Below, one piece after another: positions 35,001 through 57,492 of a DNA stretch of 64,000 nucleotides. Numbering within the stretch: the first letter of the stretch is position 1; each line of letters begins with the position of its first letter. The stretch covers positions 11,236,974-11,300,973 of the forward strand of contig OX419757.1 of the NCBI GenBank assembly GCA_948567375.1, in the 5' to 3' direction. The notes under the pieces were generated by a model. The model did not search any database, was not told where the DNA came from, and saw nothing but the letters and a program-made list of their open reading frames with translations. The DNA is from Lunularia cruciata (lineage: Eukaryota; Streptophyta; Marchantiopsida; Lunulariales; Lunulariaceae). Made by a program: the position numbers and the translations under genes.

Positions 35001-35457
35001 GTTATCTTTGTCACGCCATTTGTAGTTCCGCATCTAGATGCTCGGACACTGGAGTTCCAATGATGGTAGTTAGAGTTATTCTAGCTATTTCACAGGGACT
35101 ACTTTCTGATGGTTAGATTTTGTGTTCGGGGTACTGACTTCACGGTGGGGCCCACCGTCACTTTGCACCGTTTGCACCATCGAGTGTGCCGTCAGCGGGA
35201 CCGTTAGGGTTTCAGGGCTAGCTCAAGTCCAGGGGGTATAGTTTCAAAGTGAGCTCCAGAGAGCTCACTTCTCTGATGTTGAGCCTTCGAGTTCCTGGCT
35301 ATGGTGGACAGAGGCCGGCGAGCGTCACCTGGATTCTCTATGCTTGAGTGGGTGTGGCTTGACTGTAATCAGTGCCCAGTTGTTGGCAGTTTATAGAGTG
35401 ACAGATCAAGTACTGATCTGAGTTGAGTTGAGTTGAAAGTGTTAAGCAATCTGATTA
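35001..35457 (+). repeat. Left LTR of element A, first 101 bp missing
   Basis: From the TGTCACGCC at 35009 to CTGATTA at 35457 it matches 52187-52635 base for base in length (449). The first eight bases (35001-35008) are a diverged match to GATAGC at 52181-52186. The upstream 101 bases of the LTR (52080-52180) are absent here. After CTGATTA the sequence continues ACATCAGAGAAGTG, which keeps an ATCAGAG core of a tRNA-Met type primer-binding site but is otherwise degenerate. Confidence 0.88.
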
Positions 35458-36903: not shown

Positions 36904-37475
36904 GTGAGGGAAGAGATTGACTCTAAGTTGGAGTTTGACACAGGAGCTGATTCAATTGAGAGTGCACTTGGTGTGTCCGCACCGTTGTTGTGGGACATGG
37001 ACAAGATTTATGGGGCCTCCAAAGGCCCTAGGCGTTACTCTGATACAGTGGGTACCATTGAGTTGGATGACTTCATCCAGGAGTTCGATAGTTGGTGTGA
37101 TCTGCAGTAGATGCGGAACCCGACTTTGTTCACACCCTTCATGGCATGGAAGGGGTTGTTTCAGCACTTGGTGGGTCCACCGATGGACGACTACCATGAG
37201 TTCAGGAGAGCTCATTTGGAGGAGATTGAGTTATGGAGACAGTATTGGTCTCCACACTATGTCTCCATCACTTCAGGTTTGGTGGCCAGGAGTAGGTCGG
37301 CTGTACCTACGAGTTCTAGCTCGAGTAGTGTTGGTGGAGCTAGTGGAGGTGCACTAGCTGGAGATAGTGCTACTACGAGTGGAGGTACCGCTGCAGGAGG
37401 TGGTGTGGTACCGGGGTTTAACCCCATGGTGGAGTTCTTCCTATGTTTGAGGCAGAACTACCAGGGAGTGCGGAC

Positions 37476-38154
37476 TGTGAGCCGGCCTGTCTCTCACTCA
37501 GGATAAACCTCTGATGGCTATTATGGTAGCGCACCATGGACTAAGAAGGCAAGGAACCCCAACTCCATCATACTCCTCCAAGGCTAACACTCCAAGACTC
37601 AAGACATTGCTCACTAGAGAACTCAATGAGAGAGAGATAGTTGCAAATGAAAGGATGATGAGTACCTCCTCACTCCTTGTTTATATACTTGTGAAATAGT
37701 TACGTACCAAAGTTACTAATTACCGTAGTAACTCAAGTTACTAGACTAAAAGTCAAGTAAAGTCAAAAAGTAGAAAGGAATATCCATTCACATGGGCATA
37801 TTCCCCTTATCTTGACCCAACCACTAAAGCAAGGATTCCTTCACATGGGCTATCCTTGGACTAAAGAAGAATCCAAAACAAAAAGGCTTGTGGGCCCAAG
37901 AGTTCTCAACTCTTTCCCCAAAGCCAAACACCTAGGAATAATACCAAGTCAACACACTAAAATCCAAAATAGTGGTGCTCATCTTTTCTACTTCCTCTAA
38001 AGTAAGGTCCCATCTATCTTAGCTATGACTAACTTTAGCTAACCATGACTAATATAGAACCATCCTTTATCTCTATATAAATAATATCTCTTAAGTACTT
38101 GTAATACCAAGCTAAATATCACAATACCACACACATGCACAAATGGGTGTTACA
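37476..38154 (-). repeat. 3' LTR of element B
   Basis: 679 bp, left copy on the plus strand. Contains a short open frame also found in the other LTR, so that frame is not a gene. Confidence 0.96.
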
Positions 38155-38168
38155 TTTACCCCCGGACT
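38155..38168 (-). promoter_or_regulatory. Polypurine tract of element B
   Basis: The minus strand reads AGTCCGGGGGTAAA directly before the 3' LTR start TGTAAC, the expected place for plus-strand priming. Confidence 0.65.
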
Positions 38169-38202
38169 AAGTTTTCACTTTGTCCTCAAAGTGAAGGTCT
38201 CT

Positions 38203-41200
38203 CTACCTTCTATGGTACATCTTCAACTTATCATGGTTAATCCTATCAAAGTGTCTTCCTCCCAACTCCTTGAGATCATAGGTGTAATTGCCCCACACCT
38301 TCTCTACTATGAAAGGTCCAAAGTACTTAGGCAAAAACTTCTTTTGCACTCTCTTGAATCGAATGGAATCAAACAACATTACCCAATCACCTTCTTTGAA
38401 AGGCTCCACCTTCTTCTTGCCTTGCCTCTTGTCATAGCTCTCCTTTTGTTTCCTTTGGGCTTGCTCCACTCGAACCATAGCAACTGCTCTTGCCTCTTCC
38501 AACTCCATGAGTTGATCCTTCCTTGACTTCCCTGCATCACTTCCTTGTGCTTTCTTCAATCTCCTATGAATGCTTTGGAAGGTAGGAAGATCAAAGTGAA
38601 TAGGTAAGGTAGACTCAATACCATACACAAATTGGAATGGAGAATATCCAGTGGAAGTCTTCATGGTTGTCCTATACTCCCACAAAACTGCATGAATCCT
38701 CTTGTCCCAATGATGTTTAGCCCCCTCCATTTCTGCATCTTTGGCCAACATCATGCACAAGGTCTGATTGGTTCTCTCTGCCAAGCCATTGGAATTGGGC
38801 TTATAGGATGTAGTTACTCTATGTGTGATAGAGAAATGTCGTAGCATGGCTGTAGTAATGCTTCCTGTAAACTCTCCTCCTCTATCAGAAACCAACTCCA
38901 AAGGGCATCCAAACCTAGTGATAATGTGTTCATAAAGAAATCTACCCACTTCATCTTCATTCTTGTCCCTCAATGGTCTAGCCTCAACCCACTTGGTAAG
39001 GTAATCAGTAACTACCACAATGTACCGATTGTTCCTTGGGGTTCTATTGAGAGGTCCTACAAAATCAATTCCCCACTTCTCAAAAGGTCCTAGCAATGGA
39101 ATTGATCTAAGTGGTGGAGTGGATGTAGACTTTCTAGCAAAAGCTTGACAAACATGACAAGTTTTGCAATAATCAAGACAATCCTTGAAAATCCCTCTCC
39201 AATGGTAACCTGCATCTAGAATCTTGAAAGCAGTCACCTTTCCTGCAAAGTGTCCTCCACATACTAAACCTTCATGAAACTCCTTTATGAGTAGGATAGA
39301 CTCTTCCTTACCCACTGCTCTTCGAAGTAGACCATCTGCTCCTTGGTGAAAAAGAATATCCTCCACCATTGTGTAAGGTCTAGATCTTGCTGCAAGGGCC
39401 TTCCTCTCCCTAGCATGCATCCCTTCTGGATAGTTACCTCTTGTCACAAAATCCACAATCTCCTTGTACTCCATTGGAATCTCTTGAGTGACTGAGATTG
39501 TCATGAGCTCCTCATCCGGGAAGGAATCATCTACTGGCTCATCTCCATCATGATCATAGGCTCTAGATAACAAATCAGCATTTGCATGTTTCTTTCCTGG
39601 CCTATCCTCAATTGTGTAGTCATACTCAGACAAGAGTATCATCCACCTTGCTAGTCTCCCTTCAACATTAGGCTTGTTGAAGATGTACTTCAAAGCCTTG
39701 TGATCCGTGACAATTGTGGCTTTCCCTCCAATCAAGTAGTGTCTAAACTTCTTGAGACCAAAGATCACTGCCAACCCTTCTCTCTCTGTGACAGAGTAGT
39801 TCTTCTCTGCTGAAACCATCTGCCTACTAGCATAAGCTATTGGATGATCATGCCCATCTTGGTCTAATTGACTAAGAGTGCATCCTATAGCTACATTAGA
39901 AGCATCAGTGTAGAGGATGAAAGGCTTACTCCAATCAGGTTTAGCAAGAATTGGAGCTACAACAAGGGATTGCTTGAGCTCCTCAAAAGCTTTGAGAGCC
40001 TCCTTGTCTTCCAAAATCACCATGTAATCTACACCCTTCTTCATATAGATGGTCAATGCATAAGCCTTGTTGGAAAATGAGAAGATGAACCTCCTATAGT
40101 ACCCAACCATTCCCAAGAATTGGCGTAACTTTGTCAAGCTTGAAGGGAATGGAAGGTCTGAGATTTTTCTCACCTTCTCAGGATCAACTGCTATTCCATC
40201 CTTGGAGATGATGTGCCCCAAAAGTAGACCTTCTTCACATCCAAAAATGCACTTCTCTGGGTTGAGTGATGCATTTGCCTCATCCAAGCGTTGCAAGACT
40301 TTGATTAGGTGCTCAAAGTGCTCCTCCTTGCTCCCATAGACACAAAAGTCATCAATGAAATCTCTCACAAATTTCCCAATGAAAGGTTCAAATACCTTGT
40401 TCATGAACCGTTGGAATGTGGCTGGAGCATTGCAAAGCCCAAAAGGCATGACCTTGAAAGCGTAAGTTCCCCAAGGTGTGGTGAATGTGGTGAGTTGTTG
40501 ATGCTCTGGTGCAATCTTTATTTGGTTATATCCACTATAACCATCTCCAAAACTGTACCTCTCATGACCTGCAACCTCCTCCAAGATCTCATCAATGAAT
40601 GGCAATGGGTAGTAGTCCTTCTTGGTAACAGCATTAAGCTTCTTGTAATCCACACATACCCGAAGCTTGCCATTCTTTTTCTTCACAATGACAATTGGAG
40701 ACACCCATTCTGAATTCTCCACCTCAAAGATAAATCCAGCCTCCTTGAGCTTATCAATCTCCTCCTTCACAACCAAAGATATTGGTGGGCTAATGCGACG
40801 TTGCTTTTGGCGGATTGGTCTTGCATGTGACTCCACCTCTATCTTGTGCTCCTCCAAGGTGACTTCCTTCAAATCCTTGTAACTAAAAGCAAACACATGG
40901 ATGAACTTGCGGAAAATCTCCTCAAATCTCACCTTCTCCTCCTTGGTAACATTTGGGCCATACTTGAGGGTAGATAACCTTCTCTCTACCTCCTCAAGTG
41001 TCAATGGTGATTTATCTGGGTCCTTCAAAACCTCTGGCTTAGGTGCAAAATCCATAGCACACAAGGGATACACATCTGAATCAGATTCAGATTCATCTTC
41101 CTCCGTGGAAGTCTCCTCTTCCATGCTTGTGTCCACACCTGAAGCTCCTTCTTCAGAATCTGATTCACAATAATTAGAAGATGGGGTATCTGAATGTGAA

Positions 41201-43029
41201 GTGTTGGTGGTGTTAGTCACAGGGACAGTGACTCTATGGTTTGATGGCCCAATCCTCAAGTACCCTTTGTGCCATCGATCAGTTGTGCGTGCTGCTCTCA
41301 ACCATGGCCTCCCAAGAAGTAAGTCATAGCTTGAATCCTTCAAGACTTGGAAAGTCATGAGATTTTGAACTCCCATAACTGAAACTACCACCTTATCCAT
41401 CACCCCTACTGGTCGAACTTGTTGCTTGTTTGCCATGCTCACCACAAATGTTGAAGGTCTTGAGGGTATCATACCCAACTTCTTCATCAACCTTTCTGAC
41501 ATGGCATTCACTGCTGATCCTCCATCAACCAATGCATCCTTGATGTTGTGACCATTCACTCTCACATCAATCTTGGAGGCATATTCACAAGCCTCCCATG
41601 GTGCTGGCTTGGCATCCACCACCCCCATTGATACTGGAACTTTTGCCTTCTTCTTCTTTTTGCTCCTTGTAGAACTCAAACCACCTCTAAGCTCCTTTCT
41701 CAAGGTAGGGTTCAAAGCAATTAATTGGCCCACTGTGATGTTAGCCTTGTGACTACCAACATCCTCCAACACATTGTAGTTCCATTGTTGCTTTGAGATC
41801 AAGAAGTCCTCCATCCCCAACTTCTTCCTTGGAGTCTTTGTTGTTGATGGTGTTGAGGTGCGAGTGCTCCTAGTAGACATAGGAGTATCCTTGCTTGAAG
41901 TAAATCCTTGAGAAGAGTGAACATCCTCTGCAAAACGAGCTCTCTTCTTCTCTTGTGCCAAAAGCTCCAAATTAAGACCCTTGGAGTTTGAGCACTCTCC
42001 CTTCTCATACTTGCTCTCAACCACATCTATGGATGCTATCCCCTTACCTTTGTTGGGATTAGGAGCCACTTGGGTTTCACTACCTCCCTCTTTCCCTCTA
42101 TTGGCTCCCTCATAACCCCTTCCTCCATGGTAAGTGGAATTTGGGCAATTCCTTTGGATATGGCCTCTTCCTCCACAACCAAAACAATTTCTATCATTGA
42201 AATTGTTGGCTGGTTGGCCTCCTCTATATGGATAGTTTCCATAACTCCTAGGTCCTCTCCCTACATTCTGATCCACCTCTCTCTTCTCCCATAGTTGCAC
42301 CACATTGATCTTGAGATCCGCAAGTTGTTCTGTGATGGTTTGGAGTGGATCTTTTGGTGGAGGTGCAAGAATTGGAGCAACTACTACTTGTGGTGCAACC
42401 CTTGTCACCAAAGTATCAGAAGTTCCACCATACTTGTAGCCTTGAGGAGGATGCACAACCTCCTTCACCACCAAATCACTCTCATCCCCTTCCAAACTCT
42501 CCTCCATACGAATTGCGATCTTGATAGCTTCAACCTTGGAAGAAGGTTTCTCATATCTCACCTTGCTTCTAATTTGTGGTCTCAATCCTCCCACAAAATT
42601 CTTGGTGAGCATGGCCCCTATGCCAATCATTGTAGTCTCCACATCATCCCCACCCTTCCTCAACACTATGCGAAATCTGGACTCCAACTTTTCCACTCTT
42701 TCCACATAGACCCTCACTTTCTCTCCATCTCCTTGCTTGAGAAATGTAACCTCACTCATCAATCTCTCATAACTCTCATCAGGAAGAAAGTTCTCAATGA
42801 GTGCTGAAGTCAAAGTCTCCCAAGACTCCTCTTCCCCCTCTCTCCTCTCTCTCTTTTGGTATTCTGACTCATACCATGTAAGTGCTGCATCCTCAAAGAA
42901 ATCTGGTAATAATGAGGCCCACTCATTCTTCCTCCTCTCATTGTTTCCTATGCAAGCTCTCTTGAAGTCTCTCACAAAGGCCTCCACATCTTCTCCATCC
43001 TTGCCAAAGAAAACCGGAAGTTTCCCCAT
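38203..43029 (-). CDS. Element B gag-pol polyprotein, intact
   Basis: Single 1608-residue frame from an ATG at 43029. Gag with a retrotransposon capsid fold region (about 1-190); one CCHC zinc knuckle, CFGCGGRGHIQRNC (282-295); protease with ALVDGGSAVNAM (Asp 502; D-G-G instead of D-S/T-G) and LLLGRPWL (571-578); reverse transcriptase with FIDD (891-894); RNase H with YTDASN (Asp 1042) and VTDHKAL; integrase with H1252, H1260, C1291, C1294 and a catalytic triad D1322, D1382, E1418 (spacing 59 and 35). The C terminus is an SH3-like module with no chromodomain. All catalytic residues are present. Gag and pol share one frame with no frameshift, so Gag excess must be produced another way. Confidence 0.95.
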   Translation of the reverse strand: MGKLPVFFGKDGEDVEAFVRDFKRACIGNNERRKNEWASLLPDFFEDAALTWYESEYQKRERREGEEESWETLTSALIENFLPDESYERLMSEVTFLKQGDGEKVRVYVERVEKLESRFRIVLRKGGDDVETTMIGIGAMLTKNFVGGLRPQIRSKVRYEKPSSKVEAIKIAIRMEESLEGDESDLVVKEVVHPPQGYKYGGTSDTLVTRVAPQVVVAPILAPPPKDPLQTITEQLADLKINVVQLWEKREVDQNVGRGPRSYGNYPYRGGQPANNFNDRNCFGCGGRGHIQRNCPNSTYHGGRGYEGANRGKEGGSETQVAPNPNKGKGIASIDVVESKYEKGECSNSKGLNLELLAQEKKRARFAEDVHSSQGFTSSKDTPMSTRSTRTSTPSTTKTPRKKLGMEDFLISKQQWNYNVLEDVGSHKANITVGQLIALNPTLRKELRGGLSSTRSKKKKKAKVPVSMGVVDAKPAPWEACEYASKIDVRVNGHNIKDALVDGGSAVNAMSERLMKKLGMIPSRPSTFVVSMANKQQVRPVGVMDKVVVSVMGVQNLMTFQVLKDSSYDLLLGRPWLRAARTTDRWHKGYLRIGPSNHRVTVPVTNTTNTSHSDTPSSNYCESDSEEGASGVDTSMEEETSTEEDESESDSDVYPLCAMDFAPKPEVLKDPDKSPLTLEEVERRLSTLKYGPNVTKEEKVRFEEIFRKFIHVFAFSYKDLKEVTLEEHKIEVESHARPIRQKQRRISPPISLVVKEEIDKLKEAGFIFEVENSEWVSPIVIVKKKNGKLRVCVDYKKLNAVTKKDYYPLPFIDEILEEVAGHERYSFGDGYSGYNQIKIAPEHQQLTTFTTPWGTYAFKVMPFGLCNAPATFQRFMNKVFEPFIGKFVRDFIDDFCVYGSKEEHFEHLIKVLQRLDEANASLNPEKCIFGCEEGLLLGHIISKDGIAVDPEKVRKISDLPFPSSLTKLRQFLGMVGYYRRFIFSFSNKAYALTIYMKKGVDYMVILEDKEALKAFEELKQSLVVAPILAKPDWSKPFILYTDASNVAIGCTLSQLDQDGHDHPIAYASRQMVSAEKNYSVTEREGLAVIFGLKKFRHYLIGGKATIVTDHKALKYIFNKPNVEGRLARWMILLSEYDYTIEDRPGKKHANADLLSRAYDHDGDEPVDDSFPDEELMTISVTQEIPMEYKEIVDFVTRGNYPEGMHARERKALAARSRPYTMVEDILFHQGADGLLRRAVGKEESILLIKEFHEGLVCGGHFAGKVTAFKILDAGYHWRGIFKDCLDYCKTCHVCQAFARKSTSTPPLRSIPLLGPFEKWGIDFVGPLNRTPRNNRYIVVVTDYLTKWVEARPLRDKNEDEVGRFLYEHIITRFGCPLELVSDRGGEFTGSITTAMLRHFSITHRVTTSYKPNSNGLAERTNQTLCMMLAKDAEMEGAKHHWDKRIHAVLWEYRTTMKTSTGYSPFQFVYGIESTLPIHFDLPTFQSIHRRLKKAQGSDAGKSRKDQLMELEEARAVAMVRVEQAQRKQKESYDKRQGKKKVEPFKEGDWVMLFDSIRFKRVQKKFLPKYFGPFIVEKVWGNYTYDLKELGGRHFDRINHDKLKMYHRR

Positions 43030-43300
43030 CTTAACCCCTCACTATCTTTCTTTTCTCTTAATTTTTTTTTTCTCTTTTCTTTTCTCTCACTCTATTACTA
43101 ATAGAGTATATACATGACTAACACCATCTGAGAATAATCCACTCTAGGGAACACAAAAGGTTCAGGTTGCTCCAAGATTTCTATAGCAACATCAAATCCT
43201 AGAGTGCATATTAATCTAACTCTCATGGATAGTTTATCCATAAGTTGAAAGATTATCTCCATCACTAATCTTGAGAACTAGCTGATGAAGGTGGTAGTAT

Positions 43301-43762
43301 TTATGTAGCTGTACTAAGACTCTCTCCAAGATCCTTCACCAAAGTTTCCAAAAGTGCTTTTACTCCACTACACTCATGTCCTTTTGGAAGTCCTTCAACT
43401 CCACAAACCTCACACAACTCCTTGGTCTTAGATCTTCTCCCTCCCAATCTTGGTGAAGAAGGTCCAACATGCAAACCCAAGTCAAGTAAGCCTCTCCTTT
43501 CCCTCAATCTCTTGCTCTCAAAGGTTAATGGACATGAACTTGCCTTATGTCCCTTCTCTCCACATAGAAAGCACTTAGACTCACTCTTTCCTCCAAGTGG
43601 TGTAGGTTTTTGGATCCTCTCAACACTCTCTTCAAATTCTATTGTAAACTCTCTTTTCCTCAAATCCACCCCTACAATCACCTGAAACCCTTGGGGAACC
43701 TTGCATAATCTCAATTTCCACTCTTGATGACCCTCCATGTTCCCAAAGATGAATCTAAACAC
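43301..43762 (-). CDS. Element B upstream ORF with zinc-binding motifs
   Basis: 153-residue frame between the 5' LTR and gag-pol, same strand. A perfect zinc knuckle C-x2-C-x4-H-x4-C lies at 64-77 (CFLCGEKGHKASSC) and a second cluster C-x2-C-x8-H-x-C at 117-131. The N-terminal 50 residues look like a small beta-rich fold. Further upstream frames (43711-43899, 44124-44357) overlap it and also look coding, so the true product may be longer, joined by splicing or a frameshift. I do not recognise the family. An extra Gag-like or nucleic-acid-binding protein is the simplest reading. Confidence 0.5.
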   Translation of the reverse strand: MFRFIFGNMEGHQEWKLRLCKVPQGFQVIVGVDLRKREFTIEFEESVERIQKPTPLGGKSESKCFLCGEKGHKASSCPLTFESKRLRERRGLLDLGLHVGPSSPRLGGRRSKTKELCEVCGVEGLPKGHECSGVKALLETLVKDLGESLSTAT

Positions 43763-44577
43763 TCAAACATGCTTTTTGTTGATCTCAAACTTCTCATGCA
43801 TGAGATCTCCACTCTGCAGAATTGACCCTTCCTCACAATGTCACTCAAATCTCCCAACGAATATGTCACAGTCCTCTGAAATTTTCCACACCTGATCACA
43901 ACTCTAGGGCATCCCTCCCTGCAAAATTTTAGATCTTTTCATTGAGCCATTTGGCCTAGACACGTTTCTATTCAGCACCCATATTTCAGATTTGGTCTGA
44001 AAACCACCCCCCTCACTTCAAAAACTCATAACGCACTGCGAAAAAATGATCTCTCTCTAATTTTTGTGGCACCAGGTAGGATACAATGCACTGAATTTTC
44101 TTGGAAATTTTCAGGACAATTCACTAAAAATTGAAGAAATGGCAGACTCTGTACAATTTTCCAGAGAGCATGCAGTTGCGGGAGCACTTTACCCTATCAA
44201 CTTTCAAAAATTCTAGCCCAGTGCGCATAGAAGCTCTCTCAATAATTTCAAGTGTGCTAACTGAAAGATAACCCAAGCTATCATGTGTAGAAATCTCAAG
44301 TCCAGATCTCAAACTTGAGATTTTGCCCAAAATCACCTTAATCCCCAAAATCTGCAATCCACCTCACACAATCTCTCCAATTCCTCTCATGTGTACAAGA
44401 TGTACAAAATCACCTCAAAGACATCATAATGAACTACAGGGTATACAAATGGATCTTGGTTCTCTAACATAAGTTCAGCCCTCTCCTCTCCTAATGTTCT
44501 CTCCAAGTGAGCTCTCATAGCCTCCTTCTGCCTAATGTAGAATTGGACGCGGAACATTATCTTGCCTTCTAGAGAGG
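43763..44577 (-). other. Element B leader
   Basis: Region between the primer-binding site and the upstream ORF. Several short minus-strand frames are open, including one reading from the LTR edge through EKIMFR-like sequence to 44387. No domain recognised. Confidence 0.4.
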
Positions 44578-44598
44578 TCCCGGCAACGGAACCAAAAA
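44578..44598 (-). promoter_or_regulatory. Primer-binding site of element B
   Basis: Directly after the 5' LTR the minus strand reads TTTTTGGTTCCGTTGCCGGG, resembling the TTTGGCGCCGTTGCCGGGGA-type sites used by several plant Ty3/gypsy groups. The matching tRNA is not assigned here. Confidence 0.6.
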
Positions 44599-45277
44599 TG
44601 TGAGCCGGCCTGTCTCTCACTCAGGATAAACCTCTGATGGCTATTATGGTAGCGCACCATGGACTAAGAAGGCAAGGAACCCCAACTCCATCATACTCCT
44701 CCAAGGCTAACACTCCAAGACTCAAGACATTGCTCACTAGAGAACTCAATGAGAGAGAGATAGTTGCAAATGAAAGGATGATGAGTACCTCCTCACTCCT
44801 TGTTTATATACTTGTGAAATAGTTACGTACCAAAGTTACTAATTACCGTAGTAACTCAAGTTACTAGACTAAAAGTCAAGTAAAGTCAAAAAGTAGAAAG
44901 GAATATCCATTCACATGGGCATATTCCCCTTATCTTGACCCAACCACTAAAGCAAGGATTCCTTCACATGGGCTATCCTTGGACTAAAGAAGAATCCAAA
45001 ACAAAAAGGCTTGCGGGCCCAAGAGTTCTCAACTCTTTCCCCAAAGCCAAACACCTAGGAATAATACCAAGTCAACACACTAAAATCCAAAATAGTGGTG
45101 CTCATCTTTTCTACTTCCTCTAAAGTAAGGTCCCATCTATCTTAGCTATGACTAACTTTAGCTAACCATGACTAATATAGAACCATCCTTTATCTCTATA
45201 TAAATAATATCTCTTAAGTACTTGTAATACCAAGCTAAATATCACAATACCACACACATGCACAAATGGGTGTTACA
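44599..45277 (-). repeat. 5' LTR of element B
   Basis: 679 bp, right copy on the plus strand, essentially identical to 37476-38154. Acts as promoter for the minus-strand transcript. Confidence 0.96.
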
Positions 45278-45281
45278 GGAC

Positions 45282-46650
45282 TGACAAGCTGAGGAGCTTG
45301 CTGGAGTTCCAGCGGAAGGCTGGAGAGAGCCTACGCGAGGCATACACTCGCATGAGGCGGCTGATCAGTTTCACTCAGGGAGTTACTGAGGCCCAGGCAG
45401 TCCAGTTTTGGTATGGGATATTGGACAGGGAGTTGCGACGTAGAGTTCTTGATGCTACGTTGTTGCAAGCTACTTCACCCACTTTGGCAGTAGTCTTTGG
45501 TTTGGCTGAGCGTATTGAGCTCAACATGGTGGAGGAGAGAGTGGTGACAGCTGGATTTGGTAGAGAGACCTCATCCACGGTTGTGACTTCTTCTAGAGTG
45601 CAGCAGAGTGCACCACGCCCAGTTGGTTTTCGAGGACAGGGTGGACAGCCCAGATCCTATGGAGCGAGTGGAGGGCCTAGTGGAGTTAGACCCTTACCCT
45701 CATTTTTGGGTCAATAGCAGCCAGTGAGTGGTGGTGTTGCTTGTTGGACTTGTGGTGGACCTCACCATAGGAGAGAGTGTACTCAGGGCAGCGGACCTGA
45801 TACCTCTGGTGCATCACAGCTAGTACAGAGGCAGTGTGAGCACTGCCATAGATTTGGTCATACTAGTGACCGGTGTTTTGACCTACACCCGGAGTTACGG
45901 AGTGGTAGGGCTGCTATGGCAGGTAGTAGAGGAGCTCCAATTCATGGAGGACGAGGTGGTAGAGGTGGTGGTAGAGGATCTACACCTAGTAGGGGTGCAG
46001 TACCTGCCCTTACTTCTGACACAGCTATGGCTACTCGGATTGAGCAGTTGGAGCAGAGATTGGCTAGTATGGCTATTGCTCATAGGAGATCAGATTCGGG
46101 TGCTGAGGCTTCCACCTCATATGCTGGTGATAGAGATGCTTTGGACTTCATGTGCGGAGCAGCACAGGTGGATGCATCTGCAGCAGTGACTAGGAGTGCA
46201 GTACGTGCTCCAGAGCCTAGAGGAGCATCAGTGGAGTTGGACCCACAGAGAGGAGAGGTTGGGAGACAGGTCAGACTTCCCCAGTCTTTCACGCTATCTG
46301 AGGCATTGCAGACGACATCCATGGTTCCTAGACGTCCCAGTGCAAGTGTAGTAGGTGGTGATGGAGTACCTGATGGAGTACCTGCTAGTCAGCCACCTGC
46401 TACTACACAGACTGAGTCTAGCATGATGTTGGGGGCGGCTCAGCTGATTATGCGGCATCCTTTATTTTCAACCAGTGACATGTTTACATTGGGAGTTGAC
46501 CCAGCCCCAGTGTTCCGGTTGGCTGCCACGTTGTGTGAGAGTAGGGATGGTGCAGTTCCTACTACTAGAGCAGAGGTGGTTGGTAGTAGAGCTGACTTGG
46601 TTGAGGAGCATGGGATCCGTTCAGCGACCAGTGGTTTATGGCAGGCAGCA
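45282..46650 (+). pseudogene. Element A gag, right part, with two zinc knuckles
   Basis: Continues the gag begun at 36904-37475. A capsid-type helical segment (AYTRMRRLISFTQGVTE, then QFWYGILDRELRR) is followed by a Gly/Arg-rich linker and two CCHC knuckles: CWTCGGPHHRREC at 45742-45780 and CEHCHRFGHTSDRC at 45835-45876. Next come an RGG-like patch and a short coiled coil (RIEQLEQRLASMAIAH). Double knuckles bind genomic RNA in Ty3/gypsy Gag. The TAG at 45715 lies just before the first knuckle. Confidence 0.85.
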
Positions 46651-46699
46651 GCGGCTAGACTGGAGGAGTTGCCAGCTAGACCGGCCTTTGAGAGAGCGC

Positions 46700-47150
46700 G
46701 GTTTACACCTGGTGTTGTCCTATTGGATAACCAAAGGGGGATCTTTCGTTTGGTGGGACCTTCAGGGAAGGTCTATACACCACAGAGAGTCTTGTTAGAC
46801 TCTGGTGCGCAGCCTCTTATGTTGGGGAAGGCTGCCGTTGTTGGTCTGGAGTTACGGAAGACCGATGTGGAGAGGTGTCCATTTCAGATCCAGACATCTC
46901 TAGGTGGTGGTTCGACACAGTACATCACACGTGAGGAGCTTGTTGTCCAGGTTCAGCCTGGTCATCCGACTGATAGCTCGGTGGTGAGAGCTCAAGCTAT
47001 TGCGACGATAGCTGAGTCCTATGATGTGCTAGTTGGGAGAGCAGTGTTATACTCTATGGGTTTCAGTATTGACTATTGGGAGGAGACAGCCTCTTATAGA
47101 CCTGGTTGGCAGTCTGGTGAGGGACGAGTATGTCGCCTACCAGTACGTTT
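46700..47150 (+). pseudogene. Element A retropepsin-like protease
   Basis: Active-site motif VLLDSGAQPLML with the catalytic Asp codon at 46798-46800 (D-S-G). The second hallmark follows about 80 residues later as YDVLVGRAVLYSMGFSIDYW, equivalent to the ILG turn of retropepsins. Cleaves the polyprotein in active relatives. This part has no stop in the present copy. Confidence 0.85.
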
Positions 47151-47499
47151 CAGTAGTGGCAGTCTTGGCTCACTACAGTCCGGGACCATGGCAGCATCAG
47201 TTTTAGCTTTCAGCGGTGCAGTTACTTGGCCTAGTGACTTGTTGGAGGGGAACGCCCATGCAGAGGATACTCCAGTACCAGAGGAGATCACTCGGCTATG
47301 GAGTACGAGTGGGATTGTTCCATCCACCTTGGATGTTCCATTGTGGAGTTCAGAGGAGGCATTGTAGCAGCATGCAGATCAGTTGGTGCAGCAGGCTTGG
47401 AGTGGAGCCTTCGTACCATCAGGGGATGAGTGTGAGGATGAGCCTCCAGAGGCGATTGCTTTGACACCTCTGGATACCACACTCATTGCTTGGCAGTAT

Positions 47500-48465
47500 C
47501 CAGTAGAGGGGATATGTCTATTAGAGTTGTTTGGTGGGATCAACACCGGACTAGCTGCGGTGTTACAAGCGGGTATCCGAGTACAGAGGTACTTGTATGT
47601 AGAGAGAGATGAGACTGCTAGGCGAGTCTCTCTACATCATGTGGCACACTTGGCCTATCGGTATCCGGAGTTATTACCGATGTCAGCAGTCAGAGGTTAC
47701 CAGAAGGCCTTACCAGGAGACATTTCCTTACTGGGGGCGCATGACCTAGAGAGACATGGGCCTATTCACTTGGTGATTTCTGGATGGCCATGTTAGGGAC
47801 ACACACGTGCGGGCCGCGGTTTGGGTCTTCAGGATCCTTGTTCTGGTGTGTTTTGGGAGATGTTACGGATACTACGACATCTCCAGGTTCATCAGTCTGT
47901 TTCTCCAGCTTACCTTTTGGAGAACGTTCCATTGATGGGTGATTCTCGCACTAGAGTGGTGGCAAGTACACATCAGGTCTATTCATGGATGGGACCTGCT
48001 GTATTGTTAGATGCAGCCAAAGTGGGATCACGGGCTCATCGTCTTCGTCTTTGGTGGACAAACCTCTTACCCAGAGAGGTTCTACAACGTGCTTATGATG
48101 GGATTCAGCGACTGGACCACATTCTTGTTGATGATATCTTGGATGTTGGGCGTCAGTCTCAGACAGTGGTAGTGGCTGATAGGTCACCCATGGCAGTGGT
48201 GAACCTAGTTGGACAGCCTAGAGCTGCATTTCCCACACTCATGAGTTTCCCTGGCTCTCATGCTTTTTGAGAGGGAGGACCTGGACTTGTTTGGGACTCA
48301 TAGTTACAGCAGTTGGTGGAGCCCAATGCTGATGAAAGAGAGCGGGTGATGGGTTTTCGCACCGGTATTACCGCTGTTCCAATAGTGTTAGAGGCATCCA
48401 GGCGTCAGGTGTTAGGTCAGGCTATGGACTTGAACTGTTTGACCTGGATTGTGAGCCTTGGTTTG
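47500..48465 (+). pseudogene. Cytosine-C5 DNA methyltransferase domain inside gag-pol
   Basis: Motifs in canonical order: motif I LLELFGGINTGLAAVL (47518-47565, AdoMet binding); an acidic motif II-like YLYVERDETARR; motif IV GWPC followed by a TAG where Gln is usual (catalytic Cys codon 47791-47793), then GHTRAGRGLGL and DPCSGVFWE; motif VI ENV (47920-47928, catalytic Glu); motif VIII-like RAHRLRLWW (48031-48057); and a late region ERERVMGFRTG (48334-48366) then QVLGQAMDLNCLTWI (48406-48450), resembling motifs IX-X. The order is not permuted. It sits between protease and RT in the same frame. Stops at 47794, 48268 and 48301 kill this copy. If active it would methylate DNA, plausibly the element's own cDNA or host chromatin; that role is inference. 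Confidence 0.9.
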
Positions 48466-48819
48466 GCAGAGCAGCGTAGGATGCGCTTGATAGGCATCAC
48501 CACTCGATCACTTGTGAGCCCTGTGCCTATCGAGACGATTCAGGCACATGCTGGGGGTGATGGACCGAGTGGACATGGTATTCTTGGGACACATCCAGTA
48601 GCTACTAGGGAGAGTGGTCTACTTGGAGTCCATCCAGGTGAGCGTGGGCTACTTGGATTACACTCTTGGCCCACATGGGATGCAGCCAGAGGACGTATGG
48701 AGCTTGCAGCCAGAGTGGAGGGAGTTTTTCACACAGAGGTTGGGACCTCTAGTGGTCGGGAGCATGACACCATTGCTCCCAAGGGCCCAGTGTAGCAGCC
48801 AGTCAGTATGTCTTCCACT

Positions 48820-49690
48820 CCTACTACAGTTACAGAGGATACTTGGGAGCCAGATCTTGGACCCAAGCTTACTGGAGAGGAAAGACGGAGGGTTTGGAGG
48901 TTCTTGAGGAGTCACACGAGTTGTTTTGCCTTCAGTATGAAGGATTTGGGTGCTCTGAAGGGACCTGGTATACGGATTGAGCTGACTAGCGACACACCTG
49001 TTTTCTGACGTCCTTATCGATATAGTGAGATGGAGAGGACATTGATTCAGAGCCGGAGTAGTGACCTTTTTGAGGCTGGTTTGGTGGAGATTTCACATGG
49101 AGAGTATGCATCAGCGACAGTGATGCCAGCCAAGAAGGTTATGCATGGCAACTATACAGATAGGCGGATGTGTGGAGGTTACCGTCCTATCAACCGACAA
49201 ACCAGGGCTGATCGGTATGCCATGCCTACACCGGAGGAGATTTTTGATGCGATTGGGCATGCAAAGGTCTTCAGTACTTTGGATCTACGAGCGGGATATC
49301 ATCAGTTGCCGATCAGGGAGGAGGATAAGTCCAAGACAGCATTTTGGGCTATTGATCCTCACGACAAGGATGTGTTATATCAGTGGAGGTTCTTACCATT
49401 TGGGTTGAAGAACGCTCCTGCTGAGTTCCAGAGGGTCATGGATAGGATCTTAGCTGGACTGGATTTTGCTCGGTGCTATATTGATGACATTTTGGTGTAT
49501 AGCACTACTGTGGAGGAGCATGAGAGACAGTTGTTGGAGGTGTTTGAGAGGTTGAGATCTCATGGACTCAAATTACATCCTGGGAAGTGTAGGTTCTTCC
49601 ATGAGCAGGTTGAGTATTTGGGTCACACTATCTACCCCGGAGGACTTGGTGTCCAGCAGACCAAGGTGGAGGCTATTGCACACGTGTTCC
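48820..49690 (+). pseudogene. Element A reverse transcriptase
   Basis: After a short link (LTGEERRRVWRFLRSH) and the TPVF / RPYRYS entry segment split by a TGA at 49006, the fingers and palm follow: CGGYRPINRQT, FSTLDLRAGYHQLPI with the first catalytic Asp, FLPFGLKNAPAEFQRVMD, and YIDD at 49477-49488. The order matches Ty3/gypsy polymerases. A frameshift near 49685, by the segment KVEAIAHV, displaces the downstream frame. Confidence 0.92.
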
Positions 49691-50300
49691 TCGGCCTACG
49701 GATGTGAGCAGAGTGCGAGCATTCCTTGGGTTGGCGAACTTCTATCGCCGCTATGTTAGAGGATTTAGCACCATTGCCAAGGCCTTGACAAAGCTGACCA
49801 AGCTTACACATGAGTGGTGTTGGGGAGATGAGCAGGAGAGAGCTTTTGTAGAGCTCAAGGAGAGGTTGACATCTGCTCCTATTTTGAGGAGACCGATCAG
49901 GGGACGACCATTTCAGGTTCACACTGATTGGAGTATGTTGGGGCTTGGAGCGGTGCTCACCCAACATGATGATGAGGAGAAGGAGTTTGTGGTGGCCTAT
50001 GCTAGTCGCTCCAACAATTCAGCGGAGGCGAAGTATAGTTCATATGAGGGAGAGTGCTTGGCAGCAGTTTGGGCAGTAGCACATTTCCGATGTTACCTAT
50101 TTGGTAACCCCTTCACTCTCATCACTGATCATCAGCCGCTGAAGTGGTTGATGGAGTCCGACAAGCTTTCAGGGAAGCTTGCACGATGGGCTCTGATTTT
50201 ACAGGAGTATGATTTCACGGTTGTTCACAGACCTGGAGTGGTGAACCGTGATGCAGATGGGTTGAGTAGAAACCCATGTCCCAACCAGCAGGATCAGACC
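49691..50300 (+). pseudogene. Element A RNase H
   Basis: Starts with the RT-RNase H connection RAFLGLANFYRRYV, then VHTDWSMLGLGAVL with the first catalytic Asp (codon 49926-49928), YSSYEGECLAAVWA with the catalytic Glu, and ITDHQPLKWLM with a further Asp. Ends with the GVVNRDADGLSR segment common to gypsy RNase H. Confidence 0.9.
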
Positions 50301-50639
50301 GGAGCACGTTGGCATGGTGAGACAGATGAGGAGATGGTGCCAGGTTGGCATGCATCGGCCTTTTTGTGTATATTTGCAGAGACCTTGGTGGTATCTCTCT
50401 CAGCGCATACAGGAGGAGTTATTGAGGTCACAGATCCAGAGAGTGAAGATATTGGTACAGTTTAGCGAGACATTCATGATGATGTCTTAGTGATGGACTA
50501 TCTTCGCACTGGTGTTGTGGGTGGCACAATTGGGGCCAAGGAGAGAGACCGTGTTCTTCAGCGAGCCAAACGGTTCAGATTGGAGGGTAGACACCTTTTG
50601 CGTGTATGGGAGGATGGTAGAGTGCGAGTAGTACCACTT

Positions 50640-51720
50640 CCATCACAGAGACCATAGTTGGTCCGTCATGCTCATGAGGAGCTAGGACATTTTGGAGTAA
50701 AGCGTACATATAGCTTACTCCAGAGTCATTATTGGTGGTGCAATATGCAGACCGAGGTACAGCAGTTTGTTGCCAGATGTGTGGTTTGTGACCGAGTTAG
50801 AGCATCATTCAATGCTCCTACGCCACATTTACACCCATTACCTATCATGGGATTGGGTTACCGTTGGAGTTTGGACTTCGCCGGACCTTTACCGCTGACT
50901 GTAAGACATCATCGGTATGTTTTGGTGATGGTGGAGCACTTCTCCAAGTGGATTGAGTTGGTGGCACTTCCTGACAAGTCTAGTGAAGGGACAGCTTACT
51001 CGTTCCTGGATCGAGTTCTTAGTCATTTTGGTGCACCAGCTGAGGTTTTGACTGATCAGGGTACAGAGTTCTTGGGAGAGTTTCAGGTCTTGTGTGACAA
51101 GGCTTTGATTGATCATCGTACTACATCCCGAGATCACCCTGAGGCAGATGGCTTAGCAGAGAGAGTGGTTCAGACGGTGAAGAGAGGATTGCGAAAGTAT
51201 GGTTTGCAGAGAGGCCACTTGGGAGATTGGGATCTCCAGTTACCTTGGTTGGCCATGGGCTATCGGTTGAGCCGGCAAGCCTCCTTAGCATCCTTCTCTC
51301 CATACTTTCTACTCTATGGACAAGATCTAGATTTACCTACAGCCATTCATCGAGATGCTACTGTAGTTTTGGACTTGGATGACCCTGATGTATGGATGAG
51401 CGCATGTTCTCAGCGGGCAGAGATCTTTTGGAGAGTGATGCCAATGGCCTTCGAGAACTTGGCGATTGCTCAGCATAGAGATACTTTACGCTATGCTACC
51501 ATTCAAGGAGGAGGTTATAGACCCTTGATCCGTCGATTTCATCCAGGCAACTATGTATATCTACAGCAGACAACACCGACGACACTTGATGTTTCTACAA
51601 GCCGCACTATCTTGAGAGTGCGCAAGGTTTTGCCATCTGGAGTCCTTGTGTTAGAAGGACGTGATGGTGTTGTTTGGAAGGATCATGTGCGCAATTGTGC
51701 GCCATGCCACCTCCCAAACA
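50640..51720 (+). pseudogene. Element A integrase
   Basis: HHCC zinc-binding domain (HEELGHFG ... CVVC, 50670-50792) is followed by the catalytic core with D in SLDFAGPL, D in LTDQGTEF 60 residues later, and E in DGLAERV 35 residues after that. A C-terminal SH3-like module (GNYVYLQQ, then VRKVLPSGVLVLEGRDG) replaces the usual chromodomain position. The TAG at 50655 sits just before the zinc domain. Confidence 0.9.
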
Positions 51721-51767
51721 TTGATGGTACTATGGACCCAAGCTTGGCACTTGTACGTGCAGGCTTG

Positions 51768-51910
51768 AGGTGTATGTTATGTGGCTCTTCTGGTGGAGCT
51801 GCTACTATGTTAGTGTGTGATAGCTGTTCGAGAGGATGGCATATGGCATGTATGACTCCTTCCGCACGGTGGTTCCTCAGGGACAGTGGTTATGTCCTAG
51901 ATGTACTTGA
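51768..51910 (+). pseudogene. PHD finger at the end of element A pol
   Basis: C4HC3 pattern: CMLC (51771-51782), then CDSC (51816-51827), H and C in GWHMAC (to 51851), and after a one-base frameshift near 51862 the final pair in QWLCPRC (51884-51904), immediately followed by TGA. The Trp two residues before the seventh Cys is the PHD hallmark. PHD fingers read histone H3 tails, so the likely role is steering integration, as chromodomains do in chromoviruses; this is inference. Confidence 0.85.
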
Positions 51911-52068
51911 CCTATAGCTAGTTCATTCTTTATATGGTATAGATTGCAGACAGGCGACTAACGATGGGGCTCCATAGCACCCGGCCTCCTGATCTTTGCC
52001 CATTAGAGGGTATACCATATACTTAGAGTAGATGGCTATCTGGAGTTAGAGGGACCTAACCGCCAGCT
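51911..52068 (+). other. Element A trailer
   Basis: Short non-coding stretch between the pol stop and the polypurine tract. Contains an inverted pair TATGGTATA / TATACCATA about 75 bases apart (51934 and 52011), otherwise unremarkable. Confidence 0.6.
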
Positions 52069-52079
52069 AGGGGGGCGAT
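52069..52079 (+). promoter_or_regulatory. Polypurine tract of element A
   Basis: AGGGGGGCGAT immediately precedes TGTGGCAC, the proposed start of the right LTR. Its position is the main argument that the LTR begins here and not at the later TGTCACGCC. Confidence 0.7.
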
Positions 52080-52636
52080 TGTGGCACTTTAGAGTCTATG
52101 TATGACTTATGTGTGAGTTGTGCTTTTATAGTGTATGATGTTGACAGCGATGTATGTTGTGTAGCGATGTATATACGCACGATAGCTGTCACGCCATTTG
52201 TAGTTCCGCATCTAGATGCTCGGACACTGGAGTTCCAGTGATGGTAGTTAGAGTTATTCTAGCTGTTTCTCAGGGACTACTTTCCGATGGTTAGATTTCG
52301 TGTTTGGGGTACTGACTTCACGGTGGGGCCCAGTGTCACTTTGCACCATTTGCACCGTCAAGTGTGCCGTCAGTGGGACCGTTAGGGTTTCAGGGCTAGC
52401 TTGAGTCCAGGGGGTATAGTTTCGAAGTGAGCTCCAGAGAGCTCACTTCTCTGATGTTGAGCCTTCGAGTTCCTGGCTATGGTGGACAGAGGCCGGCGAG
52501 TGTCACCTGGATTCTCTATGCTTGAGTGGGTGTGGCTTGAATGTAATCAGTGCCCAATTGTTGGCAGTTTATAGAGTGACAGATCAAGTACTGATCTGAG
52601 TTGAGTTGAGTTGAAAGTGTTAAGCAATCTGATTAT
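52080..52636 (+). repeat. Right LTR of element A, complete
   Basis: Begins TGTGGCACTTTAG after the polypurine tract and ends at CTGATTA(T), 557 bases. Positions from 52187 match the left LTR; the first 101 bases have no counterpart on the left but are repeated at 52637-52737. Confidence 0.82.
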
Positions 52637-52737
52637 TGTGGCACTTTAGAGTCTATGTATGATTTATGTGTGAGTTGTGCTTTTATAGTGTATGATGTTG
52701 ACAGCGATGTATGTTGTGTAGCGATGTATATACGCAC
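52637..52737 (+). repeat. Extra copy of the first 101 bp of the element A LTR
   Basis: Repeats 52080-52180 with one substitution noticed, directly abutting the end of the right LTR, and stops at ATATACGCAC. The next base is unrelated flank (AACATCTTAC). Confidence 0.9.
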
Positions 52738-53721
52738 AACATCTTACACTTTTACATAGGATTGGAACTCCTTAGAAAAGGGGAAAGAAAAACAACCACT
52801 TCCATCTTCCAAAATACCTTACCAAACACCCAGATATAACTAAGAAAGTAGAGAAATACATGATAAAAAACAAGGAGCATGCACACATGAAGAAATTTGT
52901 GCTTGTGGATGACTCTTGCAACATTAAAAACTATTGCACAACCCAAGGTCATACCTTTAAGACATGGAAAAAATATCCCAAGTAAGTCTTCAAGTGAAAG
53001 TGAAAGTAAAGACAACCACAAAAATGAAGTGAAAGATGATAACTGGAACAAAGTAAAGCACTTAAGATCACAAATTGCATTGGGTCAAGGAAAGGTAACT
53101 TTGGTGAATCTTGAAGGATTAAAGAGTGAAGATTCCTTTACTCTCTAAGAGATAACATCACCCATAATAGATACCAAGGTGGACATTGGGAATACTTACA
53201 ACAAAGCATAGTTGTTTCAACAAGCAAACAAAGATGAGGACAAGGATAGATCTTTGGCCAAAGAGAAGTCAATGATGGAAGATGAATTGGAAGCTTTTAT
53301 TTCCAAATTGAAGAAGGCATCCATGAAAGTAGCCACAATCACTAACTTCATCATAGATGCCAATGACAATGAAGCTAGATTGTCATGAATGAAGCAAGTT
53401 TACCAAGCTAAAAAAGATGAGCATAGTCACATTAATGAAGAGTGCCATATAGATACCAAACCACCCATAAATGAAGAAGTCCTCAAAATGAAGGATAAAG
53501 ATCCATATGAGGACTACTATGCAACATATCCGTAGTTGAAGGATATGCAAATGTGGCCATTGATACAATCATAACTCACAAGGTCATAAACTCTTAAAGA
53601 GGTGAGAGAAGATTGTAGTGACTAGCCTATAGATCCACAACTAGAAGATGATGCAGAAGTGAGAGGCAATGATGATATGGAAGACATTCTTCATTGATTA
53701 AAGTACAAATGTAACTCACTC
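52738..53721 (+). other. Right part of the segment interrupted by element A, unclassified
   Basis: Starts NILHFYIGLELLRKGE in the frame that ends at 35000, then stops after about 32 codons. Further on, 52897-53148 is open and rich in Lys, Glu and Ser, and 53160-53700 has broken Asp/Glu/Lys-rich sequence such as EKSMMEDELEAFISKLKKA. It resembles a decayed Gag-like or coiled-coil protein of another element, but no family is recognised. Confidence 0.35.
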
Positions 53722-57227: not shown

Positions 57228-57463
57228 TATAATACCAAGAGCTAGCCATATGATCTAGATATGAAATTTGGTTTGGTAACATCTAGAATGATGTTATACA
57301 TGATTGTCAAAATAGATCAGATAGAAGTATCACCAAAAAAGTACTTCTACTAATAGGGTTGTAAAAGACCAAGATTGAGGAGAGAAATAAGACAACGGAA
57401 ACTCACATTGGGACACTTGAATGAGAGAAAACTCCGAATGCCTAGCATGAGCTTTGGCTTTGG

Positions 57464-57471: not shown

Positions 57472-57492
57472 AGTAGCATACAAGGCCCTTTA

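What the first reader, a model, noticed from the sequence alone, without database searches (positions are those of the whole stretch)
47500..48465. A Ty3/gypsy retrotransposon carries a cytosine-C5 DNA methyltransferase between protease and reverse transcriptase
Seen directly: motif I (LELFGGINTG), GWPC, ENV, an Arg-rich RLRLWW motif and a late ERERVMGF region follow in canonical order, in the same frame as protease before and RT after. Retrotransposons with captured methyltransferases have, to my memory, been reported in dinoflagellates and a charophyte alga; a copy beside a clear land-plant-type NUA gene would widen this. Inference: the enzyme could methylate element DNA or host chromatin, either silencing copies after insertion or shielding new cDNA.
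Basis: partly seen in the sequence, partly recalled or inferred. Interest (0 to 1): 0.92.

Follow-up and report, generated by a model that had tools for sequence, protein, structure and literature searches.

The report
DNA-methylating jumping gene of mosses, liverworts
A retrotransposon found at about 2500 places in this plant genome carries its own DNA-methylating enzyme, the kind of enzyme that plants use to silence such elements; relatives in liverworts, mosses and green algae carry it too, so it looks like an old working part of the element and not an accident.

Summary
Confirmed and enlarged. Window 47500-48465 encodes a DNMT3-type cytosine-C5 methyltransferase (MTase) inside a Ty3/gypsy element spanning 35009-52741, split by a younger Gypsy insertion. 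This copy is decayed, but the domain is a family feature: a 23-base motif-IV pattern occurs at 2532 places in the 566-Mb genome, and other copies have uninterrupted frames. ORF1 is Gag-protease-MTase (1428 aa in L009). It ends at a near-fixed UAG (99 of the 100 listed places) in the tobamovirus-type readthrough context UAG-CARYYA; an in-frame RT-RNaseH-integrase-PHD ORF follows. A relative about 50% identical has the same UAG with a different CARYYA hexamer. Terminal repeats are split (A-internal-B-A-B), with TG...CA ends and 4-bp target duplications. Relatives occur in Marchantia, Calypogeia, Sphagnum, Closterium, Klebsormidium and Monoraphidium; metagenome relatives carry the MTase between RNase H and integrase. 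Variants shared among copies lean synonymous, as expected if the MTase is selected. Closest known: KnitGypsy-Dnmt3 of the alga Klebsormidium. New here: land-plant distribution, abundance, Gag-side readthrough layout, PHD finger, alternative domain order. Enzyme activity and host identity were not established. Most likely role (inferred): methylating the element's cDNA before integration.

The parts
35009..52741 (+). Whole MTase-bearing Ty3/gypsy element of the window (interrupted by a nested element at 37476-45277); flanking 4-bp duplication TCTT at 35005-35008 and 52742-52745
   Evidence: repeat dissection and reading of the sequence; same ends in genomic copies
35009..35457 (+). repeat A1 (left terminal repeat, starts TGTCACG)
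36703..37476 (+). first part of ORF1 (258 codons, N-terminal part with start of gag), before the nested insertion
   Evidence: tblastn of natural copy L009 ORF1, 94% identity
37476..45277 (-). younger nested Ty3/gypsy element without MTase, inserted in gag; LTRs 678 of 679 identical; target duplication GGAC; one 1611-aa open frame
45278..46780 (+). rest of gag with a CCHC knuckle and a near-CCHC motif
   Evidence: reading; tblastn
46780..47370 (+). protease region (LLDSGAQ) and linker
   Evidence: motif; aspartyl-protease Pfam matches only in relatives L057, P0170, P0208
47461..48495 (+). DNMT3-type cytosine-C5 methyltransferase domain (motifs I, IV, VI, VIII and C-terminal conserved region); in this copy broken by decay stops at 47794, 48268 and 48301
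48793..48801 (+). family-wide UAG stop followed by CAGCCA (UAG-CARYYA readthrough context)
   Evidence: readthrough itself not measured
48796..51860 (+). ORF2: reverse transcriptase, RNase H, DDE integrase, C-terminal PHD finger (decayed here, frameshift near 49685)
52069..52078 (+). polypurine-like tract AGGGGGGCGA just before repeat B1
   Evidence: reading of the sequence
52079..52184 (+). repeat B1
52187..52635 (+). repeat A2
52636..52741 (+). repeat B2 (right terminal repeat)

Best explanation
It is a Ty3/gypsy retrotransposon family in which a DNMT3-type cytosine methyltransferase is the C-terminal domain of the Gag-protease ORF. Shown: the domain is in all 28 copies read, intact copies keep its catalytic motifs, and a near-fixed UAG in a tobamovirus-type readthrough context separates it from RT-RNaseH-integrase-PHD. 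Inferred: most translation ends at the UAG, so the MTase is made at Gag level and goes into the particle, while occasional readthrough yields the RT-integrase-PHD extension. In the particle the MTase methylates cytosines of the cDNA before integration, and the PHD finger steers the integrase towards a histone mark. A copy that arrives methylated looks like ordinary silent chromatin, escapes sensing as bare foreign DNA and does little harm until methylation is relaxed in reproductive cells. The host then maintains CG and CHG methylation on inserted copies, which slowly destroys them by C-to-T decay.
For: Family-wide domain. DNMT3 kinship. Motif PCQ kept in uninterrupted copies and in 76 of the 100 places listed (the other 24 have TAG). 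Shared variants lean synonymous in MTase (3 N: 10 S) against singletons (26: 17), Fisher p 0.027, as in Gag-PR (p 1e-4) and RT (p 0.002). UAG with CAGCCA in 27 of 28 copies by exact pattern and TAG in the 28th; 99 of 100 listed places have TAG; CAATCA in the divergent relative L057; the motif rule is from PMC5382211 passages. PHD finger 7.4e-10 at the end of ORF2. Singleton C-to-T per site 0.35 in CG, 0.30 in CHG, 0.06 in CHH. DNMT domains of SymbioDIRS retrotransposons methylate CG in yeast (PMC5890265 section 10).
Against: No activity, expression, translation or methylation data exist here. In the published yeast assay the KnitGypsy-Dnmt3 domain gave no methylation (called inconclusive there). 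With CG/CHG decay variants included the MTase selection contrast is not significant (61:34 vs 21:22, p 0.096), and copies were chosen for high MTase identity or long frames. The element's CG o/e (about 0.5) is higher than that of the nested Gypsy without MTase (0.14) and of the old relative (0.21), so there is no sign of extra self-methylation in its composition. CHG decay points to host enzymes as well. Architecture-b relatives and the Klebsormidium and Closterium proteins lack a stop between MTase and RT, so Gag-level dosage is not general. P0014, a metagenome relative, has PY in place of PC in motif IV.
Confidence: 0.5

Rival explanations
1. Self-restraint: the MTase acts after integration on the element and nearby chromatin, seeding silencing that limits copy number and keeps host and element alive.
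For: Copies show the mutational footprint of CG and CHG methylation; the discussion of PMC5890265 raises this idea.
Against: About 2500 places in one genome is not a restrained family. The MTase seems under purifying selection within propagating lineages, which favours a benefit to the copy that makes it. CHG decay is expected from host enzymes alone.
Confidence: 0.2
2. The MTase domain no longer methylates DNA: it serves as a nucleic-acid-binding or structural part of the particle, or methylates RNA.
For: Sequence identity to DNMT3 is only about 20-23% in the fold comparison; the related KnitGypsy domain was inactive in yeast.
Against: Motifs I, IV (PCQ), VI (ENV) and the arginine motif are kept across many relatives and the model resembles DNMT3 closely; DNMT2 is a far weaker match.
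Confidence: 0.15
3. No readthrough: ORF2 is expressed from a spliced or separately initiated transcript and the UAG is an ordinary stop.
For: No expression data. Some Marchantia gene models run from MTase into RT (P0124, P0129), perhaps through predicted introns.
Against: ORF2 is in frame 0 with ORF1 in this family and in L057. The CARYYA hexamer is kept in the two members whose DNA was seen, with different bases.
Confidence: 0.15
4. Passenger: the MTase was picked up by chance and persists by hitch-hiking.
For: Many copies are broken in the domain: 24 of 100 listed places have TAG at the catalytic loop.
Against: It is retained in Marchantia, Sphagnum, Calypogeia, Closterium and Klebsormidium at 34-75% identity to the queries with catalytic motifs kept, and shared variants lean synonymous.
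Confidence: 0.04

Closest known systems
KnitGypsy-Dnmt3 of Klebsormidium nitens (de Mendoza et al. 2018, PMC5890265; parts 1-2, sections 10-11 and passages read)
   Same: Gypsy domain content with a Dnmt3-type MTase in the polyprotein; repeats laid out like DIRS (Fig. 4 legend); purifying selection on the MTase. The K. nitens protein P0207, probably this element (the link is mine), has MTase before RT.
   Different: Here in a plant genome at about 2500 places; MTase at the end of the Gag-protease ORF before a fixed UAG-CARYYA; PHD finger on the integrase (no PHD match in the partial P0207, and PHD is not mentioned in the main text); 4-bp target duplications documented.
SymbioDIRS-Dnmt3 and SymbioLINE-Dnmt of dinoflagellates (PMC5890265)
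   Same: Retrotransposons that encode C5 methyltransferases.
   Different: Other element classes (tyrosine-recombinase DIRS, LINE), independent captures according to that paper.
Orchid Ty3/Gypsy elements with an m6A RNA demethylase domain (PMC9289625; title and abstract start seen in a search listing only)
   Same: A Gypsy element with a captured enzyme that acts on a nucleic-acid methyl mark.
   Different: Demethylase of RNA, recent and confined to orchids by its title; here a DNA methylase spread over bryophytes and algae.
Type-I stop-codon readthrough of tobamoviruses (PMC5382211 passages)
   Same: UAG followed by CARYYA, used to make a minor C-terminally extended polymerase protein.
   Different: Here in a retrotransposon and placed after an MTase; function not measured.

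Membership tests
Ty3/gypsy LTR retrotransposon | Pol order RT-RNaseH-integrase with a DDE (rve) integrase and H2C2 zinc domain | tested here: met
   Pfam on ORF2 of copy L023
Ty3/gypsy LTR retrotransposon | integrase-type insertion: TG...CA ends and short target duplication | tested here: met
   4-bp duplications in 15 of 18 copies with both ends by script, a 16th (L020) by eye, L023 and L024 not
Ty3/gypsy LTR retrotransposon | two full direct LTRs at the ends | tested here: not met
   repeats are split A-internal-B-A-B in 15 of 20 copies, A-internal-B in 2, incomplete in 3; so it works like a Gypsy element but is not a standard LTR element
DIRS-type retrotransposon | tyrosine recombinase instead of DDE integrase, no target duplication (recalled) | tested here: not met
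   rve integrase and 4-bp duplications, although the repeat layout is DIRS-like
DNMT3 family of C5 methyltransferases | best match among C5 methyltransferase classes with solved structures | tested here: met
   DNMT3A ahead of HaeIII, DRM2, HhaI and DNMT2 by sequence and all 50 listed fold hits DNMT3
DNMT3 family of C5 methyltransferases | place inside the DNMT3 clade in a rooted tree | tested here: inconclusive
   only a partial host DNMT3 (28% of columns) was at hand as outgroup
DNMT3 family of C5 methyltransferases | de novo methylation of DNA | not testable with these tools
   needs an enzyme assay
KnitGypsy-Dnmt3 | MTase in a Gypsy polyprotein with DIRS-like repeat layout | tested here: met
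   published layout in the legend read
KnitGypsy-Dnmt3 | closest kinship to the K. nitens element in RT and MTase trees | tested here: not met
   K. nitens P0207 is separate from the bryophyte group in both trees; it is a relative of the same kind, not the same clade
UAG-CARYYA (type I) readthrough cassette | UAG followed by CARYYA between two in-frame ORFs, kept between divergent members | tested here: met
   27 of 28 own copies by exact pattern, TAG in the 28th; L057
UAG-CARYYA (type I) readthrough cassette | measurable readthrough | not testable with these tools
   needs a reporter or ribosome profiling

The most novel reading that the evidence does not exclude
One old capture of a DNMT3-type enzyme founded a green-lineage family of PHD-bearing Gypsy elements that has kept the enzyme from algae to bryophytes, moved it once between two polyprotein sites, in bryophytes doses it at Gag level through tobamovirus-type readthrough, and integrates from a circular DNA opened at a palindromic site inside the repeat (GACA-GC-TGTC), so that its ends are cyclically shifted against its primer-defined LTR. 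Each new insertion would be pre-methylated by the element's own enzyme.
Probability: 0.25. Interest if true: 0.88.

Novelty: new variant of a known kind. Interest (0 to 1): 0.75.

Why it matters
Plants silence transposons by cytosine methylation, yet here a very successful transposon brings its own DNMT3-type enzyme. A 2019 article (PMC6338049, passages read) states that methylase-bearing transposons are not present in land plants, such as tracheophytes; the Marchantia, Calypogeia and Sphagnum proteins contradict this for bryophytes. Because Marchantia polymorpha is a laboratory plant, the open question of why a transposon would encode a methyltransferase becomes testable there. The UAG layout gives a concrete prediction about protein dosage, and split repeats with 4-bp duplications raise a question about how such elements integrate.

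Tried and rejected
Rejected: one-off insertion. Rejected: the scattered TAGs as a changed genetic code; other copies have CAG at the motif-IV site. Rejected: the UAG at 48793 as decay; it is near-fixed. That pattern fixed the hexamer, so one search tests the stop codon and not the hexamer. Bacterial or phage origin of this family: not supported, not excluded. Viral contigs gave no relative among 28 pattern matches; genome contigs gave 1 relative among 15 pattern matches, a contig filed under a cyanobacterial MAG that carries protease-MTase-RT and so is most likely misfiled eukaryotic DNA. PHROG phage families match the MTase (phrog_116 9e-18), so a viral root of the enzyme itself stays possible. 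Rooting the MTase tree on the host DNMT3 fragment L050 failed (28% of columns, branch 3.26), so one or several captures stays undecided. For the second MTase tree the host row, P0174, P0211 and P0215 were dropped; order was known for 40 of its 85 rows. In the RT tree P0215 (RT-MT order) falls next to the outgroup and is flagged as a long-branch join. Domain rows with too little coverage were dropped before trees: 145 MTase rows passed and 89 remained after thinning near-identical ones. Not obtained: the RT-motif count. 'Not in print for land plants' rests on nine searches of the held library and no more. Papers: PMC5890265 parts 1-2, sections 10-11 and passages read; PMC6338049, PMC12344493, PMC9033089 and PMC5382211 passages only; all others search listings only. 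Corrections to my notebook: entry 6 says 16 of 18 target duplications by script, the script gave 15; entry 1 counts 8 TAG, one search counts 7 in the coding frames.

Full report
What is there. The window's element runs from 35009 to 52741 on the + strand and is flanked by TCTT on both sides (sequence). A younger Gypsy element on the - strand (37476-45277; LTRs 678 of 679 identical, target duplication GGAC; 1611-aa open frame) sits inside its gag. Without that insert the copy is about 9.9 kb, like many other copies. The methyltransferase (MTase) region 47461-48495 lies between the protease motif DSGA and RT, all in one frame. The copy is dead: its coding frames from 45280 to 51850 hold 7 TAG and 2 TGA, of which one TAG is the family's own stop, and the frame shifts near 49685.

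The domain belongs to the family. A search of the host assembly (566 Mb, 74 contigs) with the first 142 aa gave 9531 candidates, of which the best 150 were scored, all 96-100% identical. A 23-base motif-IV pattern with at most one mismatch occurs at 2532 places, the reversed control at none. If all were full length this would be about 25 Mb, or 4-5% of the genome (my arithmetic; many are probably fragments). I read 27 copies besides the window's: 20 of 10 kb (L009-L028) and 7 of 3.4 kb (L002-L008), chosen for high MTase identity or long frames. All 28 cover over 70% of the MTase. Copy L009 has an uninterrupted 1428-aa ORF1; copy L023 has an uninterrupted 1037-aa ORF2.

Kind of enzyme. In several natural copies motif IV reads SGWPCQGH, where the window copy has PC followed by TAG. 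The domain matches PF00145 over the curated cut-off (29.9 bits against 22) and, in the PDB, DNMT3A at E 9e-12, HaeIII at 5e-4, DRM2 at 0.003 and HhaI at 0.013. A profile of 37 relatives gives DNMT3A 4e-22, a plant DRM-type enzyme 1e-10, HaeIII 4e-7 and DNMT2 5e-5. An AlphaFold model of the relative P0001 (75% identical to L009's domain; pLDDT 81, pTM 0.85) has DNMT3A, 3B or 3C structures as all 50 listed Foldseek hits. The host's own MTase exons read as DNMT3-like (L050, L053), DRM-type (L051, L055) and a CMT/MET-like fragment (L052), by my reading of their motifs; L054 and L056 are element copies.

ORF layout and readthrough. ORF1 (Gag, knuckles, protease, MTase) ends at a TAG in every copy read: the exact context is found in 27 of 28, and the miss, L003, also has TAG there. 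Genome-wide the context occurs at 1724 places with at most one mismatch; of the 100 listed, 99 have TAG, one GAG and none CAG. By contrast the motif-IV glutamine codon is CAG in 76 and TAG in 24 of the 100 places listed, which is decay. After the TAG comes CAGCCA, which fits UAG-CARYYA, the type-I readthrough motif of tobamoviruses (PMC5382211 passages). L057, a public contig 50% identical to P0001 in the MTase, has one open frame from before the protease into RT, broken only by TAG followed by CAATCA, again CARYYA but with different bases. ORF1 ends at a similar distance after the MTase in several relatives: P0021, P0132, P0136 and P0137 end in the same ALSATK as L057, and Marchantia P0121 ends 97 residues after the last motif against 126 here. 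Predicted proteins of Klebsormidium (P0207) and Closterium (P0170, P0197) run through without a stop; gene models may hide introns. Readthrough itself is inferred, not measured.

ORF2 encodes RT, RNase H, DDE integrase and a C-terminal PHD finger (7.4e-10). The PHD finger recurs in architecture-b relatives (3 of the 3 scanned; also listed for many others). It was not found in the Closterium and Klebsormidium proteins scanned, several of them partial.

Split repeats. Fifteen of 20 copies are A1-internal-B1-A2-B2, two (L014, L016) are A-internal-B, three are incomplete; L009 has an extra piece of A inside. Ends are TGTCAC...GACA with 4-bp target duplications (15 of 18 by script, L020 also by eye, L023 and L024 not). 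Repeat B1 follows a polypurine-like tract, and the B1|A2 joint reads GACAGCTGTC, i.e. right end, GC, left end, in 9 of the 12 joints read; L018 and the window have GATAGCTGTC and L028 GACACCTGTC. The A2|B2 joint is CTGATTA|TTGTGG in most copies, with one extra A in L022 and L026. Canonical reverse transcription would give LTR = B-A, whereas the integrated ends lie at the B|A joint (inference from the positions). A circular DNA opened at the palindrome would explain A-internal-B (one-LTR circle) and A-internal-B-A-B (two-LTR circle). It does not explain why the other possible form, A-B-A-internal-B, was not seen in the 20. The legend of Fig. 4 in PMC5890265 reports a DIRS-like repeat layout for KnitGypsy-Dnmt3.

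Relatives. Named hits: Marchantia polymorpha, M. paleacea, Riccia sorocarpa, Calypogeia fissa, Sphagnum troendelagicum, S. tenellum and S. fallax, Closterium strains, Klebsormidium nitens and Monoraphidium neglectum. The Riccia and M. paleacea proteins are short and show no other retroelement domain; the Marchantia polymorpha, Sphagnum and Calypogeia sets include proteins with protease motif or RT beside the MTase. Two architectures occur: (a) MTase before RT in bryophytes, Closterium and Klebsormidium; (b) RT-RNaseH-MTase-integrase-PHD in metagenome proteins and, as far as its partial record shows, MTase after RNase H in Monoraphidium. On the RT tree and on the second MTase tree the domain order needs one change (quick trees, SH-aLRT only). 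In the RT tree this element groups with Marchantia (100), the b-type forms one group (99) apart from P0215, which lies next to the outgroup, and the a-type is one side of a branch with support 79. In the first MTase tree 27 metagenome rows that include the b-type ones are one side of a 95 branch. So RT and MTase seem to have travelled together for a long time; one capture is the simplest reading, but without full DNMT3 outgroups repeated capture or horizontal transfer is not excluded.

Selection and decay. Leaving out CG/CHG decay, singleton variants (mostly after insertion) are 26 nonsynonymous or stop to 17 synonymous in the MTase, variants in three or more copies 3 to 10 (Fisher p 0.027; 28 copies). 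Gag-PR: 94:42 against 12:25 (p 1e-4; 21 copies). First 900 bases of ORF2: 31:11 against 1:7 (p 0.002; 20 copies). With decay variants included: MTase 61:34 against 21:22 (p 0.096), ORF2 p 0.010, Gag-PR p 3e-6. Variants in exactly two copies were left out. Singleton C-to-T changes per site are 0.35 in CG, 0.30 in CHG and 0.06 in CHH, the pattern expected of CG and CHG methylation of inserted copies. CG o/e of the element is about 0.5, against 0.14 for the nested Gypsy, so composition gives no sign of extra self-methylation. A1 and A2 differ at 2-9 of 319-458 sites in ten copies and at 18 of 449 in the window copy, so many of the copies read are recent. Yet the old, decayed relative from 53744 on already had the MTase, just beyond the window's end.

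How it most likely works. Most ribosomes stop at the UAG and make Gag-protease-MTase, so the enzyme is packaged at Gag level; a minority read through to make RT, integrase and PHD (inferred from anatomy). The enzyme methylates the cDNA before integration and the PHD finger helps to choose the site (inferred; the DNMT domains of SymbioDIRS elements were active on DNA in yeast, that of KnitGypsy was not). A pre-methylated insertion is tolerated and later kept silent by the host, which would explain abundance together with heavy decay. Odds: anatomy nearly certain, readthrough about 0.85, cDNA methylation about 0.5.

Known and new. DNMT-bearing retrotransposons, including a Gypsy in Klebsormidium, are published (PMC5890265). 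In the nine searches named under Tried and rejected I found no report of them in land plants, and one article states their absence there (PMC6338049). New here, as far as those searches go: bryophyte distribution, some 2500 places in one genome, Gag-side placement with a conserved readthrough signal, PHD finger, two domain orders, and the end structure with target duplications.

Noticed in passing
window 37476-45277 (- strand): A young Ty3/gypsy element without MTase, one 1611-aa open frame, LTRs 678 of 679 identical, target duplication GGAC, inserted in the gag of the MTase element.
   Followed up: partly
window 53744-64000 and on to L029: An older, about 70-80% similar relative of the MTase element, itself interrupted by another Gypsy-like insertion on the - strand; its MTase remnant lies just beyond the window (L029:4396-5415).
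   Followed up: partly
L057 (CADCWO010000201.1) and P0022: Protease-MTase-RT sequence filed under a cyanobacterial MAG and an MTase filed under an Obscuribacterales MAG; most likely misfiled eukaryotic DNA.
   Followed up: partly
P0145-P0169, P0110, P0212: A second architecture, RT-RNaseH-MTase-integrase-PHD, in metagenome proteins and partly in Monoraphidium.
   Followed up: partly
genomic copies L014 and L016: Insertions of the form A-internal-B with matching 4-bp duplications, as a one-LTR circle would give.
   Followed up: partly
genome C7:31989637-31990454 (L050), C1:48269396 (L051), C6:13140046 (L055): Host DNMT3-like and DRM-type methyltransferase exons.
   Followed up: no
window 30001-34000: Stretch of very low G+C (0.235-0.249) just left of the element, against 0.39-0.52 in most of the window.
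   Followed up: no
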